From positions 16,397-80,396 of the forward strand of contig JAFUZP010000012.1 in assembly GCA_017476545.1 (NCBI GenBank): a stretch of DNA of 64,000 nucleotides. The letters are read 5' to 3'. Below are positions 25,450 through 52,608 of the stretch, in pieces; the stretch's first letter is position 1, and each line of letters starts with the position of its first letter. The translations under genes and the position numbers were made by a program. The notes under the pieces are model-generated. The model made no database searches and was not told the DNA's origin. It saw only the letters and a program-made list of their open reading frames with translations. This DNA comes from Alloprevotella sp. (GTDB lineage: Bacteria; Bacteroidota; Bacteroidia; Bacteroidales; Bacteroidaceae).

Positions 25450-26154
25450 TTAAAAAGTATCCCGAAGGGTCGGGGAATCCAGTATCGTACCCTCGAACCT
25501 GCGCCCGTTATACGTCCCGCTGAAGGTGGTGGCATCCTCTGCGGAACACGCGTCAAACCTCGCGTTGTCAAAGAAGTCCTCCACGTCCCAGTCCGCCCCT
25601 GCGAAAGTGGCAACAACAGTAAGGCCCGGTGTCGGGAGATAGCCGATGCCACAGTTTACTTCCAAGAAGGTACCGGAGGGATACCAGTAGTAACCATGTT
25701 TGTCCTTGGTGCAGTTTCCCTCAGCAAAGTAGTCGCAGTTGGTCACTTCGTCCGCATAGTCGCGTATGGCCTGCGCCTTGGCAGCATACTGGCTCAGGAA
25801 CGAGGTACCGTCGTTTACGTCGGCACATCCGAAGTCCCAGCCGACATGCTGCACGTCAAACCCCATCCAACCGGCATAGCAGTGACTAGGAATTAGTGAT
25901 GAAGGACCGCTATACAAAAAATCTTCGCGAGAACGCACTATCCAATAGTAGTCAATACCGGGCATCCTACTCAGAGTCACCTGCACGGGCGGCCCCGATA
26001 CCCCGCTCCCCGCCAGCAGCTGGCAGTTCAGCGGGAAGACCTGCATCGTGGGCTTCACATAGGGTTTCTTCGCCTTCGGCGCGGCGTCCGCGCACGGTTC
26101 CACTGCCTGCATATCGGCGGGCAGCGCAGCGTTCAGTTCTTTTCTTTTTTTCAT
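25450..26154 (-). CDS. Leader-cassette protein A: common leader, strongly diverged body, unknown function
   Basis: The 234-residue protein has no signal peptide or membrane helix. Residues about 26-51 carry APKAKKPYVKPTMQV and FPLNCQLLAGSG, a leader shared almost exactly with the protein at 51646-52248. The body is Cys-, Trp- and Tyr-rich (six or more Cys after the leader) and unlike that of the partner, except for a weakly shared end (GADW..EDFFDN, then TFSGTYNG). The leader ends in LLAGSG, a form reminiscent of the leader peptides of small exported or processed Bacteroidales peptides, but I cannot name a family. The promoter, a 5' UTR of about 340 nt and the leader codons are duplicated as a unit. 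No maturation or transport gene is adjacent. Confidence 0.65.
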   Translation of the reverse strand: MKKRKELNAALPADMQAVEPCADAAPKAKKPYVKPTMQVFPLNCQLLAGSGVSGPPVQVTLSRMPGIDYYWIVRSREDFLYSGPSSLIPSHCYAGWMGFDVQHVGWDFGCADVNDGTSFLSQYAAKAQAIRDYADEVTNCDYFAEGNCTKDKHGYYWYPSGTFLEVNCGIGYLPTPGLTVVATFAGADWDVEDFFDNARFDACSAEDATTFSGTYNGRRFEGTILDSPTLRDTF

Positions 26155-26515
26155 TTCTTAATACTTTAATTTATTTATAATAGCATTTGTTTATTACCGC
26201 TCACACCATCCCCAGGCCTCCCCCTCTCGGGGGGACGGGAGGGGGGCTGGAGGGGCTGCGGGGCATGGGCTGGTACATACACGCCAAGCGGCGCACCGCA
26301 CCCCACCGAAGGGGGCGCGATGCGCCGCTCAATACGTACTTGTATTTCTGTAACTACTTGATTTCCAGAGCGTGAGGGGGGGTAATTCGGGCACTTCCCG
26401 CCCCGCAGATACGGGCAGAGCCGGCCTCCGCTGCTGCGCAGGCCGCTATACCGTTATTATATATATACGCGTAAGGCATAATCAAGTTGCTGATTTCCGA
26501 TGCAAAGGTAGGCAA
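26011..26515 (-). repeat. Duplicated promoter-UTR-leader cassette, copy A
   Basis: This 505-bp segment is nearly identical to 52105-52608 at a constant offset of 26093-26094. It spans about 48 leader codons, the start codon, the 5' UTR and the -7 box TACCTTTG (minus strand, 26503-26510). Homology fades at both ends. No target-site duplication or transposase is visible. Confidence 0.93.
26155..26510 (-). promoter_or_regulatory. Promoter and structured long 5' UTR of leader-cassette gene A
   Basis: Transcription from the -7 box at 26503-26510 would give a leader of about 340 nt. It contains a long hairpin at 26288-26328 (GCGGCGCA arms extended by about nine further pairs) and a G/C-run hairpin around 26222-26255. 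The last 45 nt before the ATG are AT-rich and unstructured. All parts recur in copy B. Confidence 0.75.
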
Positions 26516-26566
26516 ATATTTCCGGAAGGCCAAGGCCGGGAGAGGAAATAACAAGGCCGGGGAAAA

Positions 26567-26654
26567 CTGACCGTAGGGGTAGGAAGAACTAACCGTAGGG
26601 TTACGGTGCACCGACCATAGGGTTACGACTCCGTACCCCAAGGGCGGAGAAAAT
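26567..26654. repeat. 22-bp quasi-palindromic repeat array 3
   Basis: Four units at 22-bp spacing (anchors 26567, 26589, 26611, 26633), degenerate CTAACCGTAGGGTTACGG type. This one lies between divergent genes, unlike most of the others. Confidence 0.85.
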
Positions 26655-26692
26655 GAGCCGGGGGGGAAATTTGATTTTCCACAAAAGAATGT

Positions 26693-26700
26693 TATCTTCG
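26693..26700 (+). promoter_or_regulatory. -7 box TATCTTCG for purF
   Basis: One change from TAnnTTTG; 22 nt before the ATG at 26723. Confidence 0.5.
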
Positions 26701-26722
26701 CAACCGCAATCATAGTACACAG

Positions 26723-28540
26723 ATGGAACAACTGAAACACGAATGCGGGGTGGCCATGGTACGCCTGCGGAAGCCGCTGGCATATTACGAGCGGAAGTAT
26801 GGCACGTGGCAGTACGGCTTGCAGAAACTCTACCTGCTGATGGAGAAACAGCACAACCGGGGGCAGGAGGGTGCCGGACTGGCTTGCGTGAAGATGTACG
26901 CCGCGCCGGGCGAGGAGATCATCTACCGCGAACGGGAAGAGGGCACCGGTGCCATCGAGAAAATCTTCGGCAGCGTGGCGAAGAAGCTACAGGCGTTCGC
27001 TCCCGAGACGTTGCACGGCATTGACCATGCCTATCACCAGCTCCCTTATGCAGGAGAGATTTATATGGGCCACCTCCGGTACTCAACGACCGGCAAGAGT
27101 GGCCTTTCTTATGTGCATCCGTTCATGCGCCGTTCGAACTGGAAGGCAAAGGACCTCTGCGTCTGTGCGAACTTCAACATGACGAACGTGCCTGAGATTT
27201 TCGAGAGCATAGCCTCGAAAGGACAGCATCCGCGCATGATGTCGGACACGTACATTTTGCTTGAGCAACTGGGGCACCGCCTGGACCGCGAGAGCGAGCG
27301 TTGCTTCCAGGATGCCATCGCCCAGGGCTTGCAAGACTTGGACATCACACGCTACATCGAGGAGCACATCGAAGTGGCGAACATCCTGCGACAGGCGGCT
27401 CCCGTATGGGACGGCGGCTACGTCGTGATGGGTGTGACGGGTTCGGGCGAAACCTTCGTACTGCGCGACCCTTGGGGCATACGTCCTGCCTTCTGGTACG
27501 CCGACGAAGATGTGATGGCTGTAGCTTCCGAGCGCCCTGTCCTACAAACGGCATTCGCCCGGGAATGTGAGGATATCCACGAAATCCGTCCCGGCGAAGC
27601 GTTGCTGATGCGCCGCGACGGCACGCTGCGCACGGAGCAAATACTTGAACCCAAGGGGTTCAGCGCATGCTCCTTTGAACGCATATACTTCAGTCGCGGC
27701 AACGACCGCGACATCTACCTGGAGCGCAAGCGTCTGGGACGCCAGCTTGTCCCCGCCGTGCTCAAGGCCATCAACAACGAGGTGGACGACACGGTGTTCT
27801 CCTACATCCCCAACACGGCGGAAACGGCTTACTACGGCATGGTGGAAGCGTTGGAAACGATAGCCCCCCACCACATCCGCACGGAGAAGGTGGTGTGGAA
27901 AGACATCAAAATGCGCACGTTCATTGCCGAGGGCAACAGTCGCAACGACCTGGCGGGGCACGTTTACGACATCACTTACGACAGCATACGCCGCAACAAG
28001 GACAACCTCGTGGTCATCGACGACAGCATCGTGCGTGGTACCACCCTGCGCGAGAGCATCATACGCATCCTGGACCGCCTGCATCCGAAGCGCATCGTCA
28101 TCGTATCCTCTTCGCCACAGGTGCGCTTCCCCGACTTCTACGGCATCGACATGTCTGCCATGGACGAGTTTATCGCTTTCCGCGCAGCCGTTGAACTGCT
28201 CCGCAAGACGGGGCAGCAGGACCGCCTGCGGAGCATCTACGAACGCTGCAAGGCGCAGCAGTACCTGCCCAAGGAGCAAATGGTGAACTACGTGCGAGAG
28301 GTGTACGACGGTTTCACGGACGAAGAAATATCCGAAGAGATGGCGGACATGCTCCGTCCCGAGGGCGTGGAAACGGAAATCCGCATTGTTTACCAGACAC
28401 TCGAAGGACTCCACACGGCATGTCCACAGACACCAGGCGACTGGTACTTCTCGGGCAACTACCCCACGCCAGGCGGCGTGATGCGCGTGAATGAGGCTTA
28501 CATCAATTTCTACGAGAGATTCACCCCCACCCTATTCTGA
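26723..28540 (+). CDS. purF: Amidophosphoribosyltransferase, long Bacteroidales form
   Basis: The 605-residue protein starts MEQLKHECGVAM. The Cys at residue 8 would be the Ntn nucleophile once the propeptide is removed, and the N-terminal half is a class II glutaminase (GQEGAGLAC, MGHLRYSTTGKS, DPWGIRPAFW). The second half is a phosphoribosyltransferase with the PRPP loop LVVIDDSIVRGTT near residue 430. Enzymes of this type make 5-phosphoribosylamine, the first step of purine synthesis. It is about 100 residues longer than E. coli PurF, with insertions in the glutaminase half and a C-terminal tail. Bacteroidales often have a second, shorter PurF. It precedes the carbamoyl-phosphate synthase gene by 44 bp, a purine-pyrimidine pairing that suggests shared transcription. 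Confidence 0.85.
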   Translation: MEQLKHECGVAMVRLRKPLAYYERKYGTWQYGLQKLYLLMEKQHNRGQEGAGLACVKMYAAPGEEIIYREREEGTGAIEKIFGSVAKKLQAFAPETLHGIDHAYHQLPYAGEIYMGHLRYSTTGKSGLSYVHPFMRRSNWKAKDLCVCANFNMTNVPEIFESIASKGQHPRMMSDTYILLEQLGHRLDRESERCFQDAIAQGLQDLDITRYIEEHIEVANILRQAAPVWDGGYVVMGVTGSGETFVLRDPWGIRPAFWYADEDVMAVASERPVLQTAFARECEDIHEIRPGEALLMRRDGTLRTEQILEPKGFSACSFERIYFSRGNDRDIYLERKRLGRQLVPAVLKAINNEVDDTVFSYIPNTAETAYYGMVEALETIAPHHIRTEKVVWKDIKMRTFIAEGNSRNDLAGHVYDITYDSIRRNKDNLVVIDDSIVRGTTLRESIIRILDRLHPKRIVIVSSSPQVRFPDFYGIDMSAMDEFIAFRAAVELLRKTGQQDRLRSIYERCKAQQYLPKEQMVNYVREVYDGFTDEEISEEMADMLRPEGVETEIRIVYQTLEGLHTACPQTPGDWYFSGNYPTPGGVMRVNEAYINFYERFTPTLF

Positions 28541-28584
28541 CAAAACAACCTACCCTACCCATAACACACAACAAAGCTAACGCG

Positions 28585-31500
28585 ATGGACAACAACGAAA
28601 TGATAAAAGGGAGAGCTTGCACGCTGCTCCTCTCCGACGGCACGAAGTTTCACGGTACTTCATTCGGATATGAAGCTCCCGTGGCAGGCGAAGTGGTGTT
28701 CAACACGGCCATGACGGGTTATCCCGAAAGCCTCACTGACCCCAGCTATGCCGGACAGATTATGACGCTGACGTTTCCGCTCGTAGGAAACTACGGCGTA
28801 CCGCCCTTCACGCTGGAGGAGAACGGCTTGGCCACGTTCATGGAAAGCGAGCGCATACACGCTGCCGCCATCGTCGTGAGCGACTACAGCGAGATGGAGT
28901 CCCACTGGAACAGCCGCGAAAGCCTCTCGGAATGGCTCCGTCGCGAAAAGGTGCCGGGCATCACGGGTATCGATACGCGCGAACTGACAAAGGTGCTCAG
29001 GGAACATGGCGTGATGATGGGAAAGATTCTCTTCGACGATATGCCGGACGAGGTGCCCGAGGCACAATACGAAGGAATCAACTGGGTAGCGAAGGTGAGC
29101 TGCAAGGAGGTCGTCACCTACAACAAAGGCGCAGGAAAGCGCGTCGTACTGGTGGACTGCGGCGTGAAGCACAACATCATCCGCAACCTGCTGCGTCGCG
29201 GTCTCGAGGTGGTACGCGTGCCTTGGGACTATGACTTCAACGACATGGAGTTCGATGGTCTTTTCTTGGCCAACGGTCCGGGCGACCCCGACACCTGCCA
29301 GGCAGCAGTGGACAACATTCGCCGTTTCCTCGCCGCACCCAACGTGCGCCCTTGCATGGGTATCTGCATGGGTAACCAACTGTTGTCCAAAGCTGCTGGT
29401 GCCACCATTTACAAGTTGAAATACGGCCATCGCAGTCACAACCAGCCCGTCCGCATGGTGGGCACAAACCGCTGCTTCATCACAAGCCAGAACCACGGCT
29501 ACGCAGTAGATACGGCTACGTTGCCCGAAGACTGGGAACCGCTCTTCGTAAACATGAACGACGGCTCGAACGAGGGTGTGCGCCACAAGACCAACCCTTG
29601 GTTCAGCGCGCAGTTCCATCCCGAAGCCGCCAGCGGCCCGCTGGACACGGAATTCCTCTTCGACATGTTTGTGGACTGCCTAAACGCCAAAACCTTAAAA
29701 TACCCTAACACCCCTAACCACCCTAACAACTCCAACCACCCCCATAAAAAAGTACTCCTCCTCGGTTCCGGAGCTTTGAAGATTGGCGAAGCGGGAGAGT
29801 TCGACTACTCTGGCTCTCAAGCCCTAAAAGCCCTTCACGAAGAGGGCATTGAGACGGTGCTCATCAATCCCAACATCGCCACCGTGCAGACCTCGGAAGG
29901 CGTGGCAGACAAGATATATTTCCTACCCGTGACGCCTTTCTTCGTGGAACGCGTCATAGAAAAGGAGCGTCCTGACGGCATCCTGCTGGCTTTCGGCGGC
30001 CAAACGGCATTGAACTGTGGCGTAGAGCTCCATCGCACTGGCGTACTGGAGAAATATGGAGTCCGCGTACTTGGCACACCCGTACAGGCCATCATGGACA
30101 CAGAGGACCGCGAACTTTTCGTGGAACGCCTGAACGAGATTGACGTTAAGACCATCAAGAGCGAAGCCTGCGAAAGCATGGAAGACGCCCGTCGGGCCGC
30201 ACGCGAACTGGGCTATCCAGTCATCGTGCGCGCCGCCTACGCCCTTGGAGGCTTGGGCAGCGGATTCTGCGACAACGAGGAGGAACTGGACCGCACCTGT
30301 GAGAAGGCATTCTCGTTCTCGCCGCAAGTGCTCGTGGAAAAGAGTCTGAAGGGTTGGAAAGAGATAGAATACGAAGTGGTGCGCGACAAGTATGACAACT
30401 GCATCACGGTCTGCAACATGGAAAACTTTGACCCGCTGGGGATTCACACAGGCGAAAGCATCGTCATCGCCCCCTCGCAGACCTTGACAAATGCGGAATA
30501 CCACAAACTTCGCTCGCTGGCCATTAAAATCGTGCGCCACATCGGCATCGTGGGAGAGTGCAACGTGCAGTATGCCCTCGACCCGAACTCTGAGGACTAT
30601 CGCGTCATCGAGGTGAACGCACGCCTGTCACGATCCTCGGCTCTCGCCAGCAAGGCGACAGGCTACCCCTTGGCATTTGTCGCCGCAAAACTTGGCCTCG
30701 GATATGGTCTCTTCGAACTGAAAAACTCTGTAACAAAGGAGACCTCCGCTTTCTTTGAACCCGCGCTGGACTACGTGGTGTGCAAGATTCCGCGTTGGGA
30801 CCTCGGAAAGTTCCGTGGCGTGAACCGCGAACTGGGTTCTTCCATGAAGAGCGTCGGCGAGGTGATGGCCATCGGTCGCACCTTCGAAGAAGCTATCCAG
30901 AAGGGCATCCGCATGGTAGGACAAGGTCTGCACGGCTTTGTAGGCAACAAGGAACTGAAAATTGAAGACATCCGCACAAGCCTCGCCGCACCTACGGATA
31001 AACGAATTCTCGTCATCGAGAAAGCCTTCTTCGACGGTATGACGGTGGACGAGATTCATGAACTTACGAAGATTGACAAATGGTTCCTCCACAAGCTGGA
31101 ACACATATATAATATAAATAAGGCGTTAAAAGCCCTACCCTCCTGGGGAGTGCTGAACAAGGCGCTGCTGCGCTGTGCAAAAGTGTACGGTTTCACGGAC
31201 TTCCAGATTGCCCGCGCCCTCGGCATGGAAAAGGAAATGGAGATGGAACAGGCACAGCTCCAAGTTCGCGAAAAGCGCAAGGCACTTGGCGTGATGCCGT
31301 ACATCAAGCAGATCGACACGCTGGCCGCAGAATATCCTGCGCAGACCAACTACCTCTACCTCACCTATAATGCCGTGGCGCACGACGTGCATTTCACGCA
31401 CGGAGAAAGCACTACGCCGAGTACTCAGTCCGTCGTCGTACTGGGTTCTGGGGCCTATCGCATCGGCTCCAGTGTGGAATTTGACTGGTGTGGTGTGCAG

Positions 31501-38096: not shown

Positions 38097-38795
38097 ATGA
38101 AAAAGAAAAAGCGCAAGCTCTCGCCGAGAAAGATTGGGCGGCTGGCGATTATCCTCGCTGCCATACCGCTCTTTATATATATAACTAAATGCAGCCATAC
38201 CCGGGGACGGGCCGTTCCCGCCGAACTGGCACTCACGCCCGGCCCCTACGACCTGGCCTTCAACGACAGCAACGCCCTCCACATGGCCGCAGCCGAGGCG
38301 TTCGGCCTGCCACGCGCCATTGCCGACCGCGACGAGGCTGCACGCGATGTGGGCGAACTGGTAGAAATCCGCGACAGCGAGTTCGCCACCATCGACCGCC
38401 TGTCCCACTCCATCCCCTACCTCACACCAAACGCTGCAGACCTACTGGAACGCATCGGGCGAAACTTCCGCGACTCGCTACAGAACCGGGGCATAAGGCC
38501 GCACAAGATTATCGTCACGTCCGTACTGCGCACGGAGGAGGACGTGGCACGGCTGCGCCGCGTGAACCGCAACGCATCGGACAACTCCGCCCATCGCTAC
38601 GGAACGACGTTCGACATATCCACCCTGCGCTACAACACCCTGACATCCGACAGCATACCCCGGCAGGAATGCCACGACACGCCGCGCCTGAGGCAAGTGC
38701 TGGAATACGTCCTGCGCGACCTACGGCACGAGGGCTGGTGCTACGTCGTCAAGGAACGACGGCAGCACTGCTACCACATCACAGCACGCTACTGA
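38097..38795 (+). CDS. DUF5715 family protein, VanY/M15-like fold
   Basis: The 232-residue protein has a basic N-terminus and one membrane anchor (residues 14-30). The body resembles DUF5715 of Bacteroidota, with conserved phrases YLTPNAADLLERIGRNF, VTSVLRTEEDVARLRR, SAHRYGTTFDIS and CYHITARY. The spacing of SxHRxGxxxDI, a downstream acid and HxT recalls zinc D,D-carboxypeptidases of the M15 type, so a peptidoglycan role is plausible but inferred. It stands alone, with tig divergent and the sigma-factor operon downstream. Confidence 0.75.
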   Translation: MKKKKRKLSPRKIGRLAIILAAIPLFIYITKCSHTRGRAVPAELALTPGPYDLAFNDSNALHMAAAEAFGLPRAIADRDEAARDVGELVEIRDSEFATIDRLSHSIPYLTPNAADLLERIGRNFRDSLQNRGIRPHKIIVTSVLRTEEDVARLRRVNRNASDNSAHRYGTTFDISTLRYNTLTSDSIPRQECHDTPRLRQVLEYVLRDLRHEGWCYVVKERRQHCYHITARY

Positions 38796-38807
38796 GGCCC
38801 GGAATGA

Positions 38808-38896
38808 TTAACCATAGGGGGACGGGAAACTAACGCTAGGGCTACGGAGAACTAACCCTGCGGTTACGGAGAACTAACCCTATGGGTAAGGAAAAG
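38808..38896. repeat. 22-bp quasi-palindromic repeat array 4
   Basis: Four units at exact 22-bp spacing (anchors 38808, 38830, 38852, 38874), ending GGGTAAGGAAAAGGC, between two plus-strand transcription units. Confidence 0.9.
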
Positions 38897-39063
38897 GCTG
38901 CCGCCAGAAAAAAGCGGCAGCAGAGGGACAGGTGCAACCGACTGACGGACAAGTGACTGCCAAGATGCACGAAAAATCGTTTCCGCACCGCGAAAAAAAG
39001 TTCGTCTCCCGGCGACATATTCTCGTCATGCCCTCGTATATATAAGTAGAAGGACATGAATTT

Positions 39064-42561: not shown

Positions 42562-45450
42562 ATGAGACAGAAGTACTTCTACTCTTTGCTCTTCGTCCTA
42601 TTCAGTTTTTTCGGGACGAACACGTTTGCGCAGGAGACGGTAGAGGACGAGAAGCCGGTAATGACCATCGGCTGCCTCTCCGACCTGCATAACGAGTTGG
42701 GCCTCATCAGCGGAGGCGTGGACAACGTCCGGCTGCGCGGCACTATCCTCAACACCGTAAACAAAATGCGCGAGGATGAGGAAATCGACCTCATCGTCCT
42801 GGGTGGCGACTACACCAGTGACGTCACCATTCCCGAAGCCAACTGGGAGCGCATCCGCGACCTGATGGCCGACGCGCTCCGCAGTGCTTTCAAGCCCGAA
42901 CGCGAGAAACGCCCCGTTATCTACGTGACAGGTAACCACGACTACGAGGTGGCTAATTTCGACAACCTGCCGAAGCCGTACAATGCCGCGCGTTACTATG
43001 ACTTCATCATGAAGGACGACATCGGCGAGCTTACCGAAAAGGACGCTTTCTACGAGACTGCGGACAACGGCGACCTAGGTACGACGGACCTGCTCGCCGC
43101 GTTCCACTACGAAATCAACGGCTTTGACTTCATCGCCCTCAACTGCGGTAAATTTTATTTCAAGAGTGCGTGGGACTACAGCTACTCGCTGGAGTCCGTA
43201 GAATGGGTCGGGCAGAAACTGGCCGAGCTCTATGCCGACGACCCCGACCGCACCGTATTCTTCCTGCTGCACGTCCCCTTCATGGACAGCAACAGTATCA
43301 GCAACGTAAACAAAGGCATGGGCGGACGCGGTTCGGCGGAAGGTGTGAAGAGTGCCGAACGGCTGAAGGAAATCCTCGCCCAGTACCCCAACCTCATCAT
43401 GCTCTACGGCCACGACCACGGCTCGGACAACGCCTACTTCCGCAGCAAGACGTCGCAGCGCGTGACGCGTTATAACACCTTCGGCAATGTCATCGCCACC
43501 ACCGATGAGACACACGTGGACGAGATACTCGACGATGAAGGCGGAGAGACAGAAGAGTACACACCCGAGGCCGGCGTAGTGAAGGGCTACTTCAAGAGCT
43601 ACAGCGGCGACGGCTACATGAGCTACCTCAGCACAAGCGACAACTTGCAGTGCGGAACGGCAAAGACGGAAGCCACTATCGCGGCCTCCGCGACCATGGC
43701 CGACCGCTATACCATCCTGCTCAACGGCGGTTACACGCACCTGGGCAGCACGGCACACTTCACGGGCAATACGGCCATCACACAGTACTCCTCGCCCTTC
43801 ATTTACAAGGTGGAGGACCCCACGGCCGAGACCGTAAAGGCACGCCGCGTCAAGACGCTGGCCGAGTTCAACGGGGGCGGCTACTACACCATCGTGGGCT
43901 ACGCCAAGAAGGACGGCCAGTACTACATGATGGGCAGCGAGAACGTCACCATCACCTACCCCGGTCTGGCCGGTTTGTTCCTCAGCGAGGAAGAACCCGG
44001 TGATGAAATAACCTTTGAGGCAGGTACCCACAGCCCCATCTGGGAGTTTGAGTGCACCACGCCTTGGGAGAGCACAACTCCCGTGGAGGACGAGCCTACC
44101 TCCGTCAAGGGTAACCTTGAGAGCTTCTCCGGCGACGGCTTCATGAGCTACCTCAGCACGGACATCAACTTACAGTGCGGCGAGGCTAAGAGCGATGTTG
44201 TCATCGCACACGCCAGCGCATATGCCGGACGCTACACCCTCTTTGTAAACAACAGCGCCTACACCCACTGCGGCAGCACGGCTCACTTCACGGGCAACAC
44301 AGCCATCTCCGAATACTCCACACCGTACATCTACCGCGTTGAGAAAGCCGAAACGGGCACCACGGCCACGGCGAAGCGCATCGCGGACCTGCGCGACATC
44401 AAGAACGGCGGGCTCTATGCCTTCGTGGGACACGCCAAGAAGGACGGTAACTGGTACCTCATCGGCAGCGAGAACGTCACCATCACCTACCCCGGCCTGG
44501 CAGGCATCTTGGTTAGCGAGACGGAACCCGGCGACGAAATCGAGATAGAGGTCGGCGAACATGCCCCCGTATGGCGCTTCGTCACGGAAGAAGGCGGCGG
44601 AGGCGGTGAAGAACCCGCAGGGGACATCACCGGCACGCTCCAGAGCAAGGCCGACGGCAAGTACATGACCGTCACCAGCAATGCAGGAACGGGCTCCTCA
44701 CCCGCACCGGTCAAGATCAGCGCCACAGCCAATGAAGGTGTTTACAACGTGCTCCTCCCCGACGGACGCTACCTCTACTGCGGCACGAAGGGCTATTTCT
44801 CCGCCAACTCCGCCGCTACGGACATCTGGTTCTACGACGCTGGGGACGGCGCACTCGCCACGCAATTGGAAATGGGCAAGGACTACGTACTCGTAGGCCT
44901 CAAGAACGGCGCGTACTACGCCGTCAGCTCCGAAGTCATCAACCCCGGTCTCGAAGGCCAGCGGATGCTCAACCTCGAAGTAACCGTCGAGGACGGCAAG
45001 ATTACCGTACCCGAGGACGACAAGTTCATCTGGACGCTCGGCGAAATGCCCGAAGGCGAGCCTTCCTTCTTCTCCGCGTTCATGGGTTCCATGCGCTACT
45101 ACAGCAACTCCATCGAGGGTGATGTCAGCGTGAGCAACTCCAAGATTGTGCAGGCGTTAGTCGTGTACATCTACAAAGACCGCGTCGTACTCAAGATTAA
45201 GAACTACGGTAGCAGCGGAAACTTCGGCGGCATACAGATCAACCCCGAGATTGCTGCGTACACCGTTTACCGAACCGTGCGCAACGCGCAAGGCGAGCTG
45301 GGTGAAGACGAAGGCCCGGTTGATGCCATCCAGACGGGCAGCATCCTGCCGCAGACCGGCAAGAAGAAGTACCACGACCTCGCCGGCCGCCGCATCAGCA
45401 AGCCCGGCAAAGGTGTGTACATCGTGAACGGCAAGAAAGTGCTGCGGTAA
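42562..45450 (+). CDS. Secreted metallophosphoesterase with three beta-repeat modules and a C-terminal sorting-like tail
   Basis: The 962-residue precursor has a signal peptide (cleavage near FAQE). The catalytic domain (about 30-315) has all five calcineurin-type motifs: SDLHNE, GGDYTSD, GNHDYE, LLHVPF and GHDHG. Two near-identical modules follow (about residues 335-510 and 515-680), each with SGDGxMSYLST, GSTAHFTGNTAI and ENVTITYPGLAG, and then a third more distant one (about 690-830). The last 30 residues (DLAGRRISKPGKGVYIVNGK) match the short conserved tail common on exported proteins of Prevotella and Bacteroides. Substrate unknown; the modules could bind ligands. Single gene with promoter and terminator. 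Confidence 0.85.
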   Translation: MRQKYFYSLLFVLFSFFGTNTFAQETVEDEKPVMTIGCLSDLHNELGLISGGVDNVRLRGTILNTVNKMREDEEIDLIVLGGDYTSDVTIPEANWERIRDLMADALRSAFKPEREKRPVIYVTGNHDYEVANFDNLPKPYNAARYYDFIMKDDIGELTEKDAFYETADNGDLGTTDLLAAFHYEINGFDFIALNCGKFYFKSAWDYSYSLESVEWVGQKLAELYADDPDRTVFFLLHVPFMDSNSISNVNKGMGGRGSAEGVKSAERLKEILAQYPNLIMLYGHDHGSDNAYFRSKTSQRVTRYNTFGNVIATTDETHVDEILDDEGGETEEYTPEAGVVKGYFKSYSGDGYMSYLSTSDNLQCGTAKTEATIAASATMADRYTILLNGGYTHLGSTAHFTGNTAITQYSSPFIYKVEDPTAETVKARRVKTLAEFNGGGYYTIVGYAKKDGQYYMMGSENVTITYPGLAGLFLSEEEPGDEITFEAGTHSPIWEFECTTPWESTTPVEDEPTSVKGNLESFSGDGFMSYLSTDINLQCGEAKSDVVIAHASAYAGRYTLFVNNSAYTHCGSTAHFTGNTAISEYSTPYIYRVEKAETGTTATAKRIADLRDIKNGGLYAFVGHAKKDGNWYLIGSENVTITYPGLAGILVSETEPGDEIEIEVGEHAPVWRFVTEEGGGGGEEPAGDITGTLQSKADGKYMTVTSNAGTGSSPAPVKISATANEGVYNVLLPDGRYLYCGTKGYFSANSAATDIWFYDAGDGALATQLEMGKDYVLVGLKNGAYYAVSSEVINPGLEGQRMLNLEVTVEDGKITVPEDDKFIWTLGEMPEGEPSFFSAFMGSMRYYSNSIEGDVSVSNSKIVQALVVYIYKDRVVLKIKNYGSSGNFGGIQINPEIAAYTVYRTVRNAQGELGEDEGPVDAIQTGSILPQTGKKKYHDLAGRRISKPGKGVYIVNGKKVLR

Positions 45451-45480
45451 GCGCTGCGCAACCACAGCATCTCAAGAAAC

Positions 45481-45516: not shown

Positions 45517-45547
45517 TTCCCGACGGCTAAGGCCATGGCTGTTCTTC

Positions 45548-45752: not shown

Positions 45753-45787
45753 AACTCCCCCGAAGCAATAGTCTTCGGGGGAGTTTT
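45753..45787. terminator. Hairpin between convergent genes, probable terminator of the aspartate aminotransferase gene
   Basis: Arms AACTCCCCCGAAG and its complement enclose CAATAGT; A-rich on one side and TTTT on the other, so it can act in both directions. Confidence 0.75.
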
Positions 45788-45814
45788 CCGTATCAAGCTG
45801 GCAGCTGCGCCGTA

Positions 45815-47014
45815 TCAGCCGAGGCGGGCGAGGGCGAGGCCGATGCGGCGCATGGCCTCGCGGATGTTCTCGTCGCTGGTGGCATAACTCATGCGGAAAC
45901 AATCGGGCGCGCCGAACGCCGCGCCGCCCACAGTGGCGACATGAGCCTGCTCCAGGAGGTAGAGGGCGAGGCTGTCGGAGTCCGTCACGCGGTGTCCCTG
46001 CGCATCTGCCTTACCGTAAAAACTATTGCAACGGGGGAAGAGGTAGAAAGCCCCCTGCGGCACGTTCACGTCAAGCCCGGGCACCTGCCGCGCGAGCTCC
46101 ACGATAAGGTCGCGACGCCGCTGGAAGGCCTGCCGCATCTCCTCCACGCAGTCCTGCGGGGCAGTATAGGCAGCAAGGGCTGCGCGCTGGCTGACAGAGC
46201 AGGGACCGCTGGTATGCTGGCCCTGAAGCTTGTTGCAGCCACGCACAAGCCACTCCGGACCAGCCATGAAGCCGATGCGCCAGCCTGTCATGGCATAGGC
46301 CTTGGATACGCCGTTAATGAGTACGGTGCGCGCCTGCATTCCCTCGCAACGGGCGATGGAGGCGTGCGCGCCTGCATAACGGATGTGTTCGTAAATCTCA
46401 TCGGATATGACGACAACTTGCGGATGGCGGCGCAGGACTTCGGCAAGGGCTTCCAGTTCCTGTTGCGTATAGACGGAGCCGGTCGGGTTCGAGGGCGAGC
46501 AAAGGATGATGGCGCGCGTCTTCGGAGTGAGGGCGGCCTCAAGCTGTGCGGGGGTCATCTTGAAGTCCTGCTCGATGGTAGCCGTGACGATGACGGGCTT
46601 GGCCCCGGCGAGCAGCACCATCTGCGGATAACTCACCCAGTAGGGGGCGGGAATGATGACTTCCTCGTCCGGACGCTCCACAAGAGCCATTACGGCGTTG
46701 CATACGCTCTGCTTCGCGCCGTTCGCCACGGAGATTTCCGCCGGCGTATAAGTCAGGCCGTTCTCGCGAAGGAGCTTTGCACAGATAGCCTCGCGCAGGT
46801 CGGCATAACCGGCTACGGGGCTGTAAGTGGTGTAACCCTCCTCCATGGCGCGCGCGGCGGCCTGCCGGATGTACGGCGGCGTGGGGAAGTCGGGCTCACC
46901 GACGGAAAGGTTGATGACATCCACGCCCTGTGCTTTCAGTTCGGCACTCTTCTGGGACATGGCCAGCGTGGCGGAGGGCTGGAGGCGGTTGATGCGGTCA
47001 GATAGAACTTGCAT
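45815..47014 (-). CDS. aspC: Class I aminotransferase, probable aspartate aminotransferase
   Basis: The 399-residue PLP enzyme has the subgroup I-gamma pattern: VINLSVGEPDFPTPPYI at the start, NGAKQSVCNAVMAL, NPTGSVY, the PLP Lys in SKAYAMTGWRIG (near residue 240), and the carboxylate-binding Arg in FRMSYATSDENI. Such enzymes transfer the amino group of aspartate to 2-oxoglutarate, some also using prephenate. It is the last gene of a minus-strand run (LptF/G-like, ribBA, CapA-like, this gene) with spacings of 12, -4 and 5 bp. Confidence 0.85.
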   Translation of the reverse strand: MQVLSDRINRLQPSATLAMSQKSAELKAQGVDVINLSVGEPDFPTPPYIRQAAARAMEEGYTTYSPVAGYADLREAICAKLLRENGLTYTPAEISVANGAKQSVCNAVMALVERPDEEVIIPAPYWVSYPQMVLLAGAKPVIVTATIEQDFKMTPAQLEAALTPKTRAIILCSPSNPTGSVYTQQELEALAEVLRRHPQVVVISDEIYEHIRYAGAHASIARCEGMQARTVLINGVSKAYAMTGWRIGFMAGPEWLVRGCNKLQGQHTSGPCSVSQRAALAAYTAPQDCVEEMRQAFQRRRDLIVELARQVPGLDVNVPQGAFYLFPRCNSFYGKADAQGHRVTDSDSLALYLLEQAHVATVGGAAFGAPDCFRMSYATSDENIREAMRRIGLALARLG

Positions 47015-47019
47015 ACGAA

Positions 47020-48174
47020 TTATTTATAGGTTGGTACTTCTCTGATGTCACCCACGTTGTGCTTCGCGAAGAGGGCTCGGGCGTTGGCTGCGAAACGCCC
47101 CATAAGGCGGCGCTCCTCGGCATTGAGGCTGTCCTGCGGATAGCTCACGGGGTAGAGGCGGTGGTTCTTACGCCGCGAAACGGGTGGGCGTGACACCCAT
47201 TGCAGGGAATAGGAACAGTCGGCGAGGCGCACGGCGGTGTCCTTCTCCAGGGTGAGTGCCACCATCAGGCCGCCGTCGCAATTCTCCATCCATTGGTTAG
47301 AGATGAAGTTGCCGAGGGAATAGGCCAGGAAGTGGCGCCCGCCGAGGGAGTCCGTGCGCACCTCCATCGGCTGTACCACGTGGGGATGCCCGCCTATGAC
47401 GTGCGTCACACCGTTCTGGAAGAGCCAGTCGGCCAACTCACGCTGCTCTCCTGTTGGTAACAAGGCGTATTCTATGCCCCAGTGCATGAGGGCGATGATG
47501 CAGTCCGGCCGCATAGCACGGGCTGCGCGGATGTCCGTAAGGATTTGGGCGCGGTCGATGAGGTTCACCACATTACCGCGCGGCACGGGGATGCCGTTCG
47601 TGCCGTAGGTATAGCAAAGGAAGGCGATGCGGAAGCCGTTCTTCTCAACGAGGAGCGGGTAGTCGCGGCGGCGCGAGGCGGTGTCGGCATACGTTCCGAC
47701 ATGAGCCAGACCGAGGCTGTCCAGCATCCGGATGGTGCGCTCCACGCCCCGGCGTCCCGTATCGCAGCAGTGGTTGTTGGCAGTGGAAAGGACATCAAAA
47801 CCCGCGTCACGGATAGCATAAATATAGGGGTCGGGAGCACAGAACTGGGGGTAGCCGCTATAGGGCTTTCCGCCGAGCGTCACTTCGAGGTTGGCCACTG
47901 CAAGGTCGAAGCCACGGATATAGTCCGCCAATTTGTCGAAGTAGGAAGAATAATCGTAAGTACCGTCAGCGGTACGCGCGGCGTTGATCTGCGTGACGTG
48001 CTGCATCAGGTCGCCCGCGAAGAGCAGGGTGATGCGTCGCGTCGTGTCCGCCCCGTCAGCGGAAACCGTACTGTCCCCTGTCCCTGACCCACCCCGCTGG
48101 CAGGCGGCAAGGAGCAAGAGCAATACGGAAGCAAGGAGCAGGCGACAGGAAAGGTGGGGCATGCGTCCGTTCAT
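47020..48174 (-). CDS. CapA-family metallophosphoesterase-like lipoprotein
   Basis: The 384-residue protein has a lipobox LLLAACQRG (Cys near residue 25), so the mature protein is probably membrane-anchored. The domain is of the CapA/PgsA type: [72 protein letters not shown]. CapA proteins take part in poly-gamma-glutamate capsule synthesis in Bacillus, but many Bacteroidota members occur without capB or capC, as here. The start overlaps the ribBA stop by 4 bp. Confidence 0.85.
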
Positions 48175-49385
48175 TTCTTCAAGTGTAACGTATGTCCCAT
48201 GCGCTCCTGCTTGGTCTGCAGGTAGCGCTCGTTATAGCGGTTGGGCTCCACCTCTATCGGCACGTTCTCCGTAATTTCCAGGCCGTAAGCCTCCAGTCCG
48301 ACACGCTTCACGGGGTTGTTCGTCATGAGCCGCATTTTGCGCACACCGAGTTGGCTGAGAATCTGCGCACCCACACCGTAGTCGCGCTCATCGGGGTCGT
48401 AGCCGAGGTGCACGTTCGCGTCCACCGTGTCGTAGCCCTGCTCCTGCAGCTTATACGCGGCAATCTTCGCCATCAGGCCGATGCCGCGCCCCTCCTGGTT
48501 GAGATAGAGAATGATGCCGCGCCCCTCCTGCTCCACCATCTGCATGGCGCGGTGGAGCTGGTCGCCGCAATCGCAGCGCTGGCTACCGAAGATGTCGCCC
48601 GTCATGCACGATGAGTGGACGCGCACCAGCACGGCGTCCTCGGGACTCCAGCTGCCCTTGATGAGCGCGATGTGCTCCTTACCGCCCATCTTTTGGCGGA
48701 AGGGTATCAGGTGAAAGTGCCCGTAAGCCGTCGGCATGTCCACCTCCTCACCGCGCTCCACGAGGCTCTCCGTGCGCAGACGGTAGGCGATGAGGTCACG
48801 GATGGTCAGGATGCGCAGGCCGTGCTCACGGGCGAACTCCCGTAGCTGCGGCATACGCGCCATCGTCCCGTCCGGATTGAGGATTTCAATCAGGCAGGCT
48901 GCAGGCTGCAATCCCGCGAGGCGGGCCAGATCGACCGCCGCCTCCGTATGCCCCGCACGGACGAGTACGCCACGGTCCTGGGCATATAGGGGACTGATAT
49001 GGCCGGGACGCCCGAACGTTTCCGGCGTGCTCTGCGGGTCGGCAAGGGCACGGATGGTGGCCGCACGGTCGTGGCAGCTCACCCCGGTCGTGCATCCCTC
49101 CAGCTTATCCACCGTGACGGTGAAGGGCGTGCCGAGCATACTCGTATTCTCGTCCACCTGGTGTTGCAGGCGGAGCTGGCGGCAGCGCTCGATAGTAACA
49201 GGGGCGCAGAGCACCCCACGCCCATACTGCATCATGAAATTGACGCTCTCGGGCGTGGCGAACTCGGCAGCCATGACCAAGTCGCCCTCGTTCTCGCGGT
49301 CTTCATCGTCCACAACGACGACGAACTTGCCGGCCTTGATATCTTCCAATGCTTCCTCTACGGTAGCAAGACGGATGGTTTCCAT
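48171..49385 (-). CDS. ribBA: Bifunctional DHBP synthase / GTP cyclohydrolase II
   Basis: The 404-residue enzyme joins RibB (residues 1-200: [20 protein letters not shown], then [17 protein letters not shown]) to RibA (about 205-404: zinc Cys in [17 protein letters not shown], then [11 protein letters not shown] and [13 protein letters not shown]). It supplies both branches of riboflavin synthesis: 3,4-dihydroxy-2-butanone 4-phosphate from ribulose 5-phosphate, and the pyrimidine intermediate from GTP. No FMN riboswitch was seen; it is inside an operon, 12 bp after the permease gene and overlapping the next. Confidence 0.95.
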
Positions 49386-49397
49386 ACGTATGATGTG

Positions 49398-51293
49398 TTA
49401 TGTCGTTTGTTCTTGTTCTATTAGCGGTATCAGCTCGTCCAGCCCTTTCACGATCTGCTTCATGTCGCGGAACAGCCGCAGGCGGAAGCGCCAGATGCGC
49501 AGCCACAGGATGGCTCCCACCGGCAGCAGTATGCCGCAGATTACATTGAGGCGGTGGCTCTCGAACGGGGCGGTATGCGCGCGGACATAGATGACGGGGA
49601 AACTGTTGAGCACGTGCAGGATGGCAGGCGTGCGGGTGTTGGAGAGTTCCTCGATGATGTCCTCCAGGCGGTCACTGATGCGTGCCGCGAGGCGGTCCGG
49701 GCGGGAGCGGAAGAAGACGTGCAGGTAGTTCGGCGCGCGGTAGAGCTTGCGGCGGCGGCTGTAGTCCTCCGTGTCGGCGCGCAAGGCGGCCAGCTCAGGT
49801 GCGAGCCGTTCGTAGTCCGGCTCCTGAATGATGACCTCCTTGCGGAAGATGTGCCGCGCGGAGCGGAAGCCCAGCAGGCGCTTGAGCGTACCGAGATAGG
49901 CATCGAGGTTGAATACGACAGAGTCGCTGTTGGCCTTATACGTAAGGAAGACGCCCACCGGGGCCAGCACGGCGGAGGACATCCACATACCCACCACCAT
50001 GTTGAGCGAACCGTCGCGCGCCATCTTCATGCAGCCCGTGTCGATGATGTAGTATATAATGAATATGATGACGCTGATGACCGCCGGCAGCCCCAGCCCC
50101 CCCTTGCGGATGATGGAGCCGAGCGGCGCGCCGATGAAGAAGAAGAACAGGCAGGCCAGCGACAGCGTGAACTTCTGGTGCCATTCCTTCCAGTGGCGCC
50201 GGATGAAGTATTCGTTCTCCTTCATCACCACGCTCTTCCACTCCAGTTCCGCCGCATAGGACGAGGCGTTCGCATGGGCCAGCTGGGCCGCCGTCTGCAC
50301 CCGCTCGGGGGGCAGCGCGGCCAGTAGCGAGTCGAAGTCGGCCGTCCGGGCGCCCTTCCCTGCGGCAGCCGCAGCCTTCGGGAGCGGCTTGAAGAAGCGG
50401 GCGCGCGCCTCGCGGTAGTAGTCCCGGCCTACACTGTCCAGCTCCGCGCTGACGGAGTCGATGTCCGCCTCTATCTGCCGCAGGTTCTTTGCCTGCGCCA
50501 TGCCGCGCAGCTGCTCCTCGTCCATCTTCTCGAAGTTGCTGTCAAAGTCTATGATGAAACGCTTGTAGCCGAACGTTTCCCTGTCGTAAGGCTGGTTCGC
50601 CGCACCGAGCGCCCGCGTCTGGTCGCCGCGCAGGTTCTCGAACTGTTCGCCCTGCCAGATGTCCAGCACCAGGTGCAGCTTGTCCTCCGTCATCTCCATG
50701 CGTCCCGAGTCCGCCACCACGATCTGCGCCCTGTCGAAGCCCTCGTTGTTCTTGTATATCATCAGCCCGTAGAGCATCCCCGTCCCCACGTCCTTCCGGT
50801 CCACGTAGAGGTTGAAGCCCGGCACGCCGTTGTAGAACACCCCTTCCGGTATCTCCAGCGCCGGCGACGTCTGCCGCATGCTGAGCAGCAGCGTCCGCAG
50901 TTTCAGTTGGGCCTCCGGCGCAGTCTTGTTCTGGAAGTAGAACGATGTGCCCGACAGCCCCGCAGCCAGCAGCAGCACAGGCAGCATGATCCGCACCAGC
51001 GGAACGCCCGCCGCCTTCATCGACAGCAGCTCCAGCCGCTCGCCCATGTTGCCGAACGAAATCAGCGAGGCAAGCAGCACCGACAGCGGGAGCGACATCG
51101 GCACCAGCGTAATCGCCATGTACCAGAAGAACTCCGCCAGCACGTCCACCGTCAGTCCCTTGCCGATAAGCTCGTCCACATACCGCCACGTGAACTGCAT
51201 CATGAAGACGAAGAGCGTGATGAAGAACGCCCCGAGGAAGACCAGAAGGAACTTCTTCAGGACAAACACGTCCAACTTCTTAACCAGTACCAT
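49398..51293 (-). CDS. LptF/LptG-family (YjgP/YjgQ) permease
   Basis: The 631-residue protein has the LptF/G start (KLDVFVLKKFLLVFLGAFFI), a first bundle of three helices with RLELLSMKAAGVPLVRIMLP, a long periplasmic beta-jellyroll region, and a second bundle near residues 375-470 (FTLSLACLFFFFIGAPLGSI). A C-terminal soluble part with one or two more hydrophobic stretches follows; this makes it much longer than the 360 residues of E. coli LptF, but similar in size to other Bacteroidota members as I recall them. It is expected to move lipopolysaccharide out of the inner membrane with LptB. First gene of its operon; -7 box at 51330-51337. Confidence 0.88.
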   Translation of the reverse strand: MVLVKKLDVFVLKKFLLVFLGAFFITLFVFMMQFTWRYVDELIGKGLTVDVLAEFFWYMAITLVPMSLPLSVLLASLISFGNMGERLELLSMKAAGVPLVRIMLPVLLLAAGLSGTSFYFQNKTAPEAQLKLRTLLLSMRQTSPALEIPEGVFYNGVPGFNLYVDRKDVGTGMLYGLMIYKNNEGFDRAQIVVADSGRMEMTEDKLHLVLDIWQGEQFENLRGDQTRALGAANQPYDRETFGYKRFIIDFDSNFEKMDEEQLRGMAQAKNLRQIEADIDSVSAELDSVGRDYYREARARFFKPLPKAAAAAGKGARTADFDSLLAALPPERVQTAAQLAHANASSYAAELEWKSVVMKENEYFIRRHWKEWHQKFTLSLACLFFFFIGAPLGSIIRKGGLGLPAVISVIIFIIYYIIDTGCMKMARDGSLNMVVGMWMSSAVLAPVGVFLTYKANSDSVVFNLDAYLGTLKRLLGFRSARHIFRKEVIIQEPDYERLAPELAALRADTEDYSRRRKLYRAPNYLHVFFRSRPDRLAARISDRLEDIIEELSNTRTPAILHVLNSFPVIYVRAHTAPFESHRLNVICGILLPVGAILWLRIWRFRLRLFRDMKQIVKGLDELIPLIEQEQTT

Positions 51294-51329
51294 GCGCGTC
51301 AGTGCCGAGCCATTTTAGCGTTACAGGCG

Positions 51330-51337
51330 CGAAGATA
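51330..51337 (-). promoter_or_regulatory. -7 box TATCTTCG for the LptF/G-ribBA operon
   Basis: Minus-strand box, one change from consensus, 36 nt before the ATG at 51293. Confidence 0.55.
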
Positions 51338-51594
51338 ACCTTTTATTCCCGAAGCGGAAAATTTCACGCCACGCCATCCGCACCCGCGCACACATATTTA
51401 TATAATACGCGCGCGGGGAAGGGCGGATTGCAGGCTGCGGGCTGTGGGGTAGTTGGTAGATGGTTCCCGGCTTGCTGCCACCGGCTCACATCTATCAGCC
51501 CACAGCCAACTCCACACACCCCCCTTAAGCGGGCTTCGTAAATGCACTTTACGGCCAGGATGTACGCCCCCGCTATTTAGCAATATGTTACAAA
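51338..51594. other. Gene-free spacer between two minus-strand units
   Basis: Roughly 260 bp with no supported gene; it holds a TATAT-rich stretch near 51390-51410 and nothing else I can define. Confidence 0.4.
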
Positions 51595-51635
51595 AAGCCC
51601 CGCCTTACCCGCTTAAAACCGGCAAGGCGGGGGCT
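51595..51635 (-). terminator. Intrinsic terminator of leader-cassette gene B
   Basis: Arms AGCCCCGCCTT and AAGGCGGGGGCT (one bulged G). On the minus strand the stem is followed by TTTTTG, 11 bp after the stop codon. Confidence 0.8.
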
Positions 51636-51645
51636 GCAGAGACAC

Positions 51646-52248
51646 TCAACCCTGATATGGAACGACATTAAGCACAAACGTCACCTTAACTGGAACGCCG
51701 TTATGCGTCCCACTAACCGTTTTCTCCACCTCTTCAGATAGAGGGCCGCTAACAAACACACCGTCGCCTTCCAGCTCTACATTGGCAAGGAAGTCCGCCT
51801 CACTCCAACCTTCACCGCCCGGGCCGAATTGAACTAACGGACCCCAAGCTTTTCTTACATTTTGGTATCCATAAACCCTATTTATTTTGTCTACATGTTC
51901 GTCGCTATAATAACACATGTCTGTGAAGGACGTGGGGTTTGGCGTTGTAAACATATAGCCACTGTTCGTAAGACGCGAAAAAGAAGGCGAAGTGAGAAAG
52001 TCATCCACCGTTATATCGCCACGCCGCTCATAGCAGTATTTGTCCATCGATGAGTTATACATAGAAAATCCGCCACTGATGGCGACCTGAACAGGACCGC
52101 TCGCCGCCAGCAGCTGGCAGTTCAGCGGGAAGACCTGCATCGTGGGCTTCACATAGGGTTTCTTTGCCTTCGGCGCGGACTCCGCGCCCGTTTCCGCTGC
52201 CCGCATATCGGCGCACGGCGCAGCGTTCTCATTCATTCTTTCGTCCAT
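51646..52248 (-). CDS. Leader-cassette protein B: common leader, strongly diverged body, unknown function
   Basis: The 200-residue protein has no signal peptide. Residues about 24-48 carry APKAKKPYVKPTMQV and FPLNCQLLAASG, as in the protein at 25450-26154. The following 150 residues share little with that paralogue; the middle part (about 50-130) is aromatic and Ser/Thr-rich (GGFSMYNSSMDKYCYERR, GYMFTTPNPTSFTDMCYY). Near the end both have GxxW, DFxxN and SGTxNG, so they are diverged homologues and not unrelated proteins behind a swapped leader. Promoter, 5' UTR and leader codons are the duplicated unit. No enzyme motif is visible and I cannot name a family. Confidence 0.65.
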   Translation of the reverse strand: MDERMNENAAPCADMRAAETGAESAPKAKKPYVKPTMQVFPLNCQLLAASGPVQVAISGGFSMYNSSMDKYCYERRGDITVDDFLTSPSFSRLTNSGYMFTTPNPTSFTDMCYYSDEHVDKINRVYGYQNVRKAWGPLVQFGPGGEGWSEADFLANVELEGDGVFVSGPLSEEVEKTVSGTHNGVPVKVTFVLNVVPYQG

Positions 52249-52608
52249 TTCTTAATACTTTAATTTATTTATAATAGCATTTGTTTATTACCGCTCACAC
52301 CATCTCCAAGCATCCCCCTCTCGGGGGGACGGGAGGGGGGCTGGAGGGGCTTCGGGGCATGGGCTGGTACATACACGCCAAGGGCGCACCACACCCCACC
52401 GATGGGAGCGCAATGCGCCGCTCAATACGTACTCGTATGTCTGTAACTAATTGATAACCAAAGCGCGAGGGGGGGTAATTCGGGCACTTCCCGCCCCGTA
52501 GATACGGGCGAAGCCAGCCTCCGCAACGGCGGAAGCGGCTATACCGTTATTATATATACACGCGTAAGGCATAATCAAGTTGCTGATTTCCGCTGCAAAG
52601 GTAGGGAA
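52105..52608 (-). repeat. Duplicated promoter-UTR-leader cassette, copy B
   Basis: Matches 26011-26515 nearly base for base, including the -7 box TACCTTTG (minus strand, 52596-52603), the G/C-run hairpin, the AT-rich stretch before the ATG and the leader codons. Differences are scattered substitutions and a few small indels. Confidence 0.93.
52249..52603 (-). promoter_or_regulatory. Promoter and structured long 5' UTR of leader-cassette gene B
   Basis: Predicted leader of about 340 nt. The hairpin at 52383-52419 corresponds to 26288-26328 of copy A. Several A-copy Watson-Crick pairs are G-U pairs here, so pairing is kept although bases changed. Confidence 0.75.

What the first reader, a model, noticed from the sequence alone, without database searches (positions are those of the whole stretch)
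25450..52608. Two strongly diverged proteins behind one duplicated 500-bp promoter-UTR-leader cassette
Segments 26011-26515 and 52105-52608 (minus strand) are almost the same, base for base: -7 box, a 5' UTR of about 340 nt, start codon and about 48 codons. After the leader the proteins (234 and 200 residues) share little but a weak end pattern. Conservation of the non-coding leader together with divergence of the product is the reverse of ordinary paralogue decay. It suggests either recent gene conversion of the front, or a family of cassettes in which expression and leader are fixed while the body diversifies, as in surface antigens, secreted effectors or peptide precursors.
Basis: partly seen in the sequence, partly recalled or inferred. 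Interest (0 to 1): 0.85.

Follow-up and report, generated by a model that had tools for sequence, protein, structure and literature searches.

The report
Shuffled family of leader-body gene cassettes
One Alloprevotella-like bacterium carries more than forty scattered copies of a gene whose promoter, regulatory leader and first 50 amino acids are kept alike while the rest of the protein diversifies, and the fronts and bodies have been reshuffled against each other.

Summary
The duplicated front is real (517 bp, 90% identical). It belongs to a family of 42 complete genes plus 11 partial or degenerate places in this 1.98-Mb draft genome, an Alloprevotella relative. Layout: promoter, leader RNA of ~220-390 nt, ~50-residue protein leader, body of 109-184 residues. 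No body match in 57 same-genus genomes or 398 of the family. Most leader RNAs hold a conserved ~41-codon frame and a GC hairpin. Bodies are acidic, with even cysteine numbers in 35 of 42, as in exported disulfide proteins. Synonymous divergence is lower in leader than body in 53 of 53 comparable pairs. Leader type hardly follows body descent (9 changes for 13 type-2 genes; 42 of 300 shuffles as few; Mantel r = 0.05), while UTR and leader travel together (r = 0.57). New: an HU-HIG DNA-binding gene, or its stump, follows 12 of 42 copies; 6 of the genome's 7 strong HU-HIG genes sit there. Best reading: exported, diversifying proteins under one shared regulatory front, exchanged by recombination. 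Function and export route are unproven.

The parts
26503..26545 (-). promoter of copy 1: -33 region and -7 box TACCTTTG (26510-26503)
   Evidence: 37 of 37 copies with enough upstream sequence have TAnnTTTG 250-400 nt before the start; homology starts at about -33
26354..26479 (-). small ORF in the leader RNA of copy 1, 41 codons, MPYAYIYNNGIAACAAAEAG...TPPHALEIK, stop TAG
   Evidence: a frame of 38-42 codons with TAG stop in 32 of 33 copies with this UTR type; coding test suggestive only
26286..26329 (-). strong GC hairpin AGCGGC...GCCGCTT of copy 1 (no U-run in this copy)
26005..26154 (-). protein leader of copy 1, residues 1-50, ending ...KPYVKPTMQVFPLNCQLLAGS
25450..26004 (-). body of copy 1 (group with IDYY...DWDVEDFFDNARF...GTYNGRRFEGTI) and stop codon
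52596..52638 (-). promoter of copy 2: -33 region and -7 box TACCTTTG (52603-52596)
52447..52572 (-). small ORF in the leader RNA of copy 2, 41 codons, MPYACIYNNGIAASAVAEAG...TPPRALVIN, stop TAG
52379..52422 (-). strong GC hairpin of copy 2 (no U-run in this copy)
52099..52248 (-). protein leader of copy 2, residues 1-50, ending ...KPYVKPTMQVFPLNCQLLAAS
51646..52098 (-). body of copy 2 (group with GGFSMY...GEGWSEADFLANVEL...SGTHNGVPVKVTF) and stop codon

Best explanation
A genome-wide, lineage-restricted family of more than forty one-gene cassettes. Each has its own Bacteroidetes promoter (-33/-7), a structured leader RNA (usually with a frame of about 41 codons and a GC hairpin), an N-terminal leader of about 50 residues ending in a YxxP...V...LLAxS motif, and a body. 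The shared front sets common expression and targeting. The body is the working part: a cysteine-paired, acidic, probably exported protein that diversifies. Homologous recombination between dispersed copies keeps fronts alike and has repeatedly paired fronts with other bodies. The original unit probably also had a downstream HU-HIG DNA-binding gene, since lost in most copies. SHOWN: copy number, layout, absence of body matches in the other genomes searched, lower leader than body divergence, largely uncoupled histories, HU-HIG genes and stumps. INFERRED: translation of the small ORF, regulation by the leader RNA, export through the leader, disulfides, gene conversion as the exact mechanism, the ancestral HU-HIG, and any antigen- or effector-like role.
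For: 42 complete ORFs with the leader; 53 places in all. 37 of 37 copies with enough upstream sequence carry a -7 box at 250-400 nt. Leader pS below body pS in 53 of 53 pairs (of 861) that pass my body-alignment cut, medians 0.32 and 0.58. Body tree of 32 genes: the 8 type-2-leader genes need 8 changes, the most possible, reached by 80 of 200 label shuffles; AU p = 4.4e-10 against one clade. Body tree of all 42: 13 type-2 genes need 9 changes, 42 of 300 shuffles as few; AU p = 3e-68. Mantel over 32 genes: UTR-leader r = 0.57 (0 of 1000 permutations), leader-body r = 0.05 (191 of 1000). Body swap between kept parts: L024 and L060 have HU-HIG genes 90% identical (dS 0.40) but bodies 31% identical with saturated synonymous sites. 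Body Cys number even in 35 of 42, mean net charge -10.6. HU-HIG: 6 intact plus 6 stumps behind 42 copies.
Against: No expression, secretion or strain data. In the three closest body pairs leader and body pS hardly differ (0.13/0.21, 0.30/0.31, 0.22/0.26), as in plain duplicates. Some association of leader and body remains: L062, L069 and L070 form a body clade with type-2 leaders only (left out of the 32-gene tree by my pattern); nearest body neighbours share leader type in 15 of 21 (about 11 expected, my arithmetic); UTR-body r = 0.20 (15 of 1000). The body trees have long branches and many open forks. The leader protein itself changes fast in the closest pairs (dN/dS 0.75, 1.14, 0.90; bodies 0.57, 1.02, 0.84), and HU-HIG is constrained in some pairs (0.14-0.26) but not others (0.73-1.24), so body diversification by selection is not shown. 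Leaders lack a classical signal peptide by hydropathy, so export rests on cysteine parity and composition. The small-ORF test is weak (pN/pS 0.59, 5 of 60 shuffles as low; another frame is nearly as good). RNA covariation is slight (-1.6 kcal/mol; 5 of 42 pairs). One draft MAG, 80% complete.
Confidence: 0.66

Rival explanations
1. No exchange: the family arose by ordinary amplification, and strong selection on promoter, leader RNA and leader peptide keeps fronts alike while bodies evolve fast.
For: The hairpin and the small frame are kept. In the three closest pairs leader and body pS are similar. One body clade has type-2 leaders only.
Against: Synonymous sites of the leader are less diverged than those of the body in 53 of 53 pairs. 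Leader types do not form one body clade (AU p = 4.4e-10 for 32 genes, 3e-68 for 42). Related bodies (L024-L019, 61%) carry leaders only 40% alike, while L024-L002 share 84% leaders with 48% bodies. Selection at RNA level could lower leader pS but does not cause the incongruence.
Confidence: 0.14
2. Mobile element: the cassette, or the cassette plus HU-HIG, is a transposing unit and the matching DNA is its border.
For: Sharp 5' start of homology at about -33 and single genes set among diverse neighbours. In a same-genus genome nearly identical HU-HIG units sit at unrelated loci (15 of 17 loci examined).
Against: No shared 3' end in an ungapped profile of 42 copies. No neighbour family recurs in more than 2 of 70 flanking ORFs scanned, and no transposase is among the 25 of 65 families shown; the 40 families not shown are unknown to me. 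No empty site could be shown.
Confidence: 0.15
3. Polymorphic toxins or effectors: a conserved trafficking leader with exchangeable toxin bodies.
For: Fixed N-terminus with exchanged bodies; probable export.
Against: 32 of 42 bodies share one end pattern rather than being unrelated domains; no convincing Pfam, NCBIfam or PHROG match; no recurring neighbour other than HU-HIG seen.
Confidence: 0.08

Closest known systems
Variable multigene families with alike 5' ends (vlhA of Mycoplasma gallisepticum, opa of Neisseria; recalled, not tested)
   Same: tens of dispersed copies, each with its own promoter; conserved 5' region and N-terminus; variable, probably exported body; a C tract of varied length among copies in the front
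   Different: no sequence relation known; leader RNA with a small ORF; HU-HIG partner; no evidence of one-at-a-time expression
Polymorphic toxin systems (PMC3482391; seen as a search listing with the start of its abstract)
   Same: conserved N-terminal part, exchanged C-terminal part
   Different: most bodies share one end pattern; no immunity genes seen; no known trafficking domain
HU-HIG lineage-specific expansions of Bacteroidetes (Pfam PF18291; Burroughs et al. 2017 recalled, paper not held)
   Same: HU-HIG genes follow 6 of 42 cassettes and stumps follow 6 more
   Different: here tied to a variable-protein cassette; no leader-body gene was seen before HU-HIG in up to 21 loci of relatives (some of those ORF calls are wrong)
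Short Bacteroidales proteins with the same leader motif (14 hits in G477, 3 each in G532 and G712)
   Same: YxxP...V...LLAxS motif followed by a variable tail; in G477 a hairpin plus U-run precedes the ORF in 9 of 9 read by eye (9 of 14 hits fetched)
   Different: G477 tails are about 15-25 residues and a lipoprotein gene follows as a separate gene in 8 of 9; of 6 G532/G712 loci only 2 could be read and neither has a lipoprotein behind

Membership tests
Homogenised-front multigene family (works like) | many copies with alike fronts and diverged bodies | tested here: met
   42 complete ORFs, 53 places
Homogenised-front multigene family (works like) | exchange between copies | tested here: met
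   incongruent leader and body histories; mechanism inferred
Homogenised-front multigene family (works like) | exclusive or switching expression; surface location | not testable with these tools
   no RNA or protein data
Polymorphic toxin system | unrelated toxin domains with cognate immunity genes | tested here: not met
   most bodies share one pattern; no recurring neighbour except HU-HIG among 70 of 79 flanking ORFs scanned
Diversity-generating retroelement | reverse transcriptase gene | tested here: not met
   no RVT_1 match in the genome, which is 80% complete
Transposable element or MITE | defined ends, target duplication, transposase | tested here: inconclusive
   5' start at about -33, no shared 3' end; empty site not testable
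Transcription attenuator with leader peptide | translated small ORF in the leader | tested here: inconclusive
   frame kept in 32 of 33 copies of this UTR type; codon test 5 of 60
Transcription attenuator with leader peptide | intrinsic terminator (hairpin plus U-run) before the gene | tested here: inconclusive
   consensus hairpin over 31 aligned copies; four or more T in a row after it in 12 of 31, not in the two window copies
Sec-exported protein with classical signal peptide | hydrophobic h-region near the N-terminus | tested here: inconclusive
   peak hydropathy over 12 residues: median 1.33, range 0.71-2.12, against 2.37-2.58 in four presumed signal sequences; no signal-peptide predictor available
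Any curated family (Pfam, NCBIfam, PHROGs, PDB chains) | profile match | tested here: not met
   only single-member weak hits (best: one PHROG of unknown function, E = 7e-4, in 1 of 42)

The most novel reading that the evidence does not exclude
A self-spreading gene-cassette system: a promoter-to-HU-HIG unit disperses through one species' genome, the HU-HIG protein helps copies recombine or be co-regulated, and bodies are swapped behind one front so that the cell fields some forty variants of an exported protein under a single leader-RNA switch.
Probability: 0.17. Interest if true: 0.9.

Novelty: new variant of a known kind. Interest (0 to 1): 0.72.

Why it matters
Roughly 2% of a small bacterial genome (my estimate: 42 genes of about 1 kb in 1.98 Mb) is given to one orphan family whose bodies were not found in the other genomes searched, with front and body modules reshuffled. 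It offers a natural test of how bacteria can keep regulation alike while the product diversifies, of what HU-HIG proteins do (they sit directly behind these genes), and of a leader motif shared by other Bacteroidales that matched no curated family here.

Tried and rejected
Chance or a two-copy duplication: rejected. Phage origin: A1 in viral contigs gave no relative. Named relatives: none in genome contigs. Both of those scans used the leader motif alone as pattern, so body-only relatives would be missed, and records near the window's genome may be left out. Known family: none convincing. Known RNA in the window or its two fronts: none but tRNA above the cut-off. DGR: no RVT_1. The C-rich repeat of the UTR in viral contigs: none. 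Empty-site test at the copy-2 locus: the TPR and ferredoxin neighbours were not found within up to 1,500 nt before LptG in 29 of 29 relatives' loci, four or more of them cut short. HU-HIG neighbours in relatives: of 29 loci L251-L279 my script called no ORF in 8; in the other 21 (some plainly the wrong ORF) I saw no leader-body gene in front. Literature: (full-text term searches, up to 8 papers listed each) showed no description of such a family; of PMC8040213 I saw passages only and took nothing from it. That is the whole basis for 'not found in print'.

Rows dropped before counts: of the 45 ORFs I dropped L065 (degenerate), L066 (cut by a contig start) and L068 (low-complexity outlier); L016 (truncated) was below the cut-off; 42 remain. 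The label counts use leader types 1 and 2 only (36 of 42; 6 genes are neither). That the leader tree needs 1 change follows from how the types were named. The Mantel test used 32 of 42; fold A4 used 31.
Full report
OBSERVATION. The 548-bp query window:52097-52644 matches the other copy at 90% over 517 bp, 706 bits. They are similar, not identical. The query gives 47 match rows in the genome in which the window lies (G000, 1.98 Mb, 46 contigs, 80% complete), which are 40 distinct places (40 of 105 candidates were scored), and none in 36 same-genus and 24 same-order genomes. DNA and protein matches together mark 53 places. Several contigs end inside a cassette (for example C4, C12, C14, C42, C46), so some end fragments may be halves of one gene and the true number is uncertain.

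FAMILY. A leader profile recovered 45 ORFs from the fetched loci; 42 are complete and make alignment A1. Invariant residues are M1, Y32, P35, V39, L47 and S50. By my labels 23 leaders are type 1 (like YVKPxMQVFPLGCGLLAASG), 13 type 2 (like YVPPTMQVIPLGPQRMLATSG) and 6 neither. With the A1 profile there are 49 matches in G000. In the 57 other genomes of the genus there are 7 short hits in 5 genomes, all in the leader part (E <= 1e-3). None in 398 other genomes of the family (E <= 1e-5). Among 392 others of the order only G477, six hits that are leader-motif ORFs of 58-78 aa. Genome contigs and viral contigs gave no relative, searched by the leader motif only. The nearest named relatives of a conserved window protein are an uncultured Prevotellaceae (77%) and Alloprevotella (74%).

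ANATOMY. 37 of 37 copies with enough upstream sequence have a TAnnTTTG box 250-400 nt before the start; the other 5 are cut by contig ends. Mean pairwise identity among 32 copies is 0.3-0.4 upstream of about -40 from the box and 0.5-0.7 from there to the box. In 33 copies the leader RNA is of one type. In 32 of them it holds a frame of 38-42 codons ending in TAG, starting 20-23 nt after the box, in spite of insertions and deletions between copies; L070 has lost the frame. Among 29 copies of equal length pN/pS is 0.59 against 0.87 (sd 0.23) for shuffled columns, 5 of 60 as low, and frame 2 is nearly as good as the true frame: suggestive, not proof. A 16-pair GC hairpin follows. Four or more T in a row follow it in 12 of 31 copies, not in the two window copies, so a terminator role is possible only for part of the family. 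Four copies (L049, L055, L064, L067) have other UTRs; L049 carries the Rfam cis-regulatory RNA DUF805b just before its start.

BODIES. No curated family or solved chain matches convincingly. 32 of 42 match an end pattern (W..xDF...GxYxG); the rest are more diverged or different. Cysteine number is even in 35 of 42, 4 or 6 in 29; net charge averages -10.6; lysine is rare and tyrosine and tryptophan are common against 11 other window ORFs. This points to an exported, disulfide-bonded protein. The leader's hydropathy is below that of four presumed signal sequences, so the route is unknown.

EXCHANGE. In the 53 of 861 pairs that pass my cut for body alignment the leader pS is below the body pS in all 53 (medians 0.32 and 0.58); pairs are not independent, and in the three closest pairs the two hardly differ. 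L024 and L002 share leaders at 84% (pS 0.05) but bodies at 48% (pS 0.62); L024 and L019 share bodies at 61% but leaders at 40%; L002 and L049 have leaders 64% and bodies 48% alike but unrelated UTRs. On a body tree of 32 genes the 8 with type-2 leaders need 8 changes, as do 80 of 200 shuffles; p-AU against one clade 4.4e-10. On the tree of all 42 the 13 type-2 genes need 9 changes, 42 of 300 shuffles as few; p-AU 3e-68. Three bodies (L062, L069, L070) form a clade with type-2 leaders only, so the uncoupling is strong but not total. Mantel tests agree: UTR-leader r = 0.57, leader-body r = 0.05, UTR-body r = 0.20. L024 and L060 keep HU-HIG genes 90% identical behind bodies that are 31% identical. 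UTR, leader, body and HU-HIG therefore have partly separate histories. Gene conversion between dispersed copies is the simplest mechanism; it is inferred. dN/dS of the closest bodies is 0.57, 1.02 and 0.84, but that of their leaders is as high (0.75, 1.14, 0.90), and HU-HIG ranges from 0.14 to 1.24 between pairs, so positive selection on bodies is not shown.

HU-HIG. Six copies (L019, L024, L027, L060, L061, L070) are followed on the same strand within 11-67 nt by an HU-HIG gene; six more (L014, L017, L021, L028, L062, L072) by a stump of its start, weaker in L021 and L072. PF18291 has 10 matches over its cut-off in the genome, 7 of them strong (E <= 1e-10); 6 of these 7 are here. The original unit probably had it. 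In another genome of the genus, G080, PF18291 has 25 strong matches; in 15 of 17 loci examined (20 fetched) the gene is nearly the same, and similarity falls off near the promoter and soon after the stop. HU-HIG units thus disperse in this genus without the cassette. That HU-HIG expansions in Bacteroidetes were described and linked to invading elements is recalled (Burroughs et al. 2017), not read.

PARALLEL. In G477 the leader core has 14 hits; 9 were read. By eye 9 of 9 have a hairpin and U-run some 40-60 nt before the start, and 8 of 9 are followed by a lipoprotein gene. Three of the upstream regions hold a sigma-54-like TTGGCACnnnnnTTGC (motif recalled). The leader motif with a structured leader RNA and a variable follow-on product may be a wider Bacteroidales theme.

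VERDICT. What the proteins do is open. I rate it a new variant of a known kind (homogenised-front, variable-body multigene family), of high interest.

Noticed in passing
L049:1439-1473: Rfam DUF805b RNA (44 bits, cut-off 35.6) shortly before the start of one family member that has an unrelated UTR.
   Followed up: partly
L162 (C8:64000-71047), front at about 2320-2680: A cassette front is followed by AT-rich, foreign-looking DNA with a ClpP-like gene and an IS1595-type transposase (names from reading the sequence, recalled): an insertion or a chimeric contig.
   Followed up: no
G080, for example L280-L295: A same-genus genome has 25 strong HU-HIG matches, many nearly identical and dispersed as promoter-to-stop units.
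   Followed up: partly
L111-L116, L167-L195 (G477): Independent family of short leader-motif genes, behind a hairpin plus U-run and mostly before a lipoprotein gene.
   Followed up: partly
L029 (C9:91628-91878), L160 (C18:7063 on), L016 (C23:13000-13626): Degenerate copies: a front with a vestigial leader before a PAP2-like gene (name recalled), a solo front without gene, and a front with a truncated body.
   Followed up: partly
window 57416-57575, 38787-38902, 15406-15499, 26568-26661, 2806-2899: Dispersed repeats of about 22-nt units like TAACCCTAGGGGTAAGGAGAAC.
   Followed up: no
window 43579-44540: Internal repeats 525-531 nt apart, 76-77% alike, inside the 962-aa ORF 42562-45450.
   Followed up: no
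L055, L064, L067: Another UTR type with a strong predicted fold and, before the start codon, a GTATAGG...CCTATAC complement that could hide the start region.
   Followed up: no
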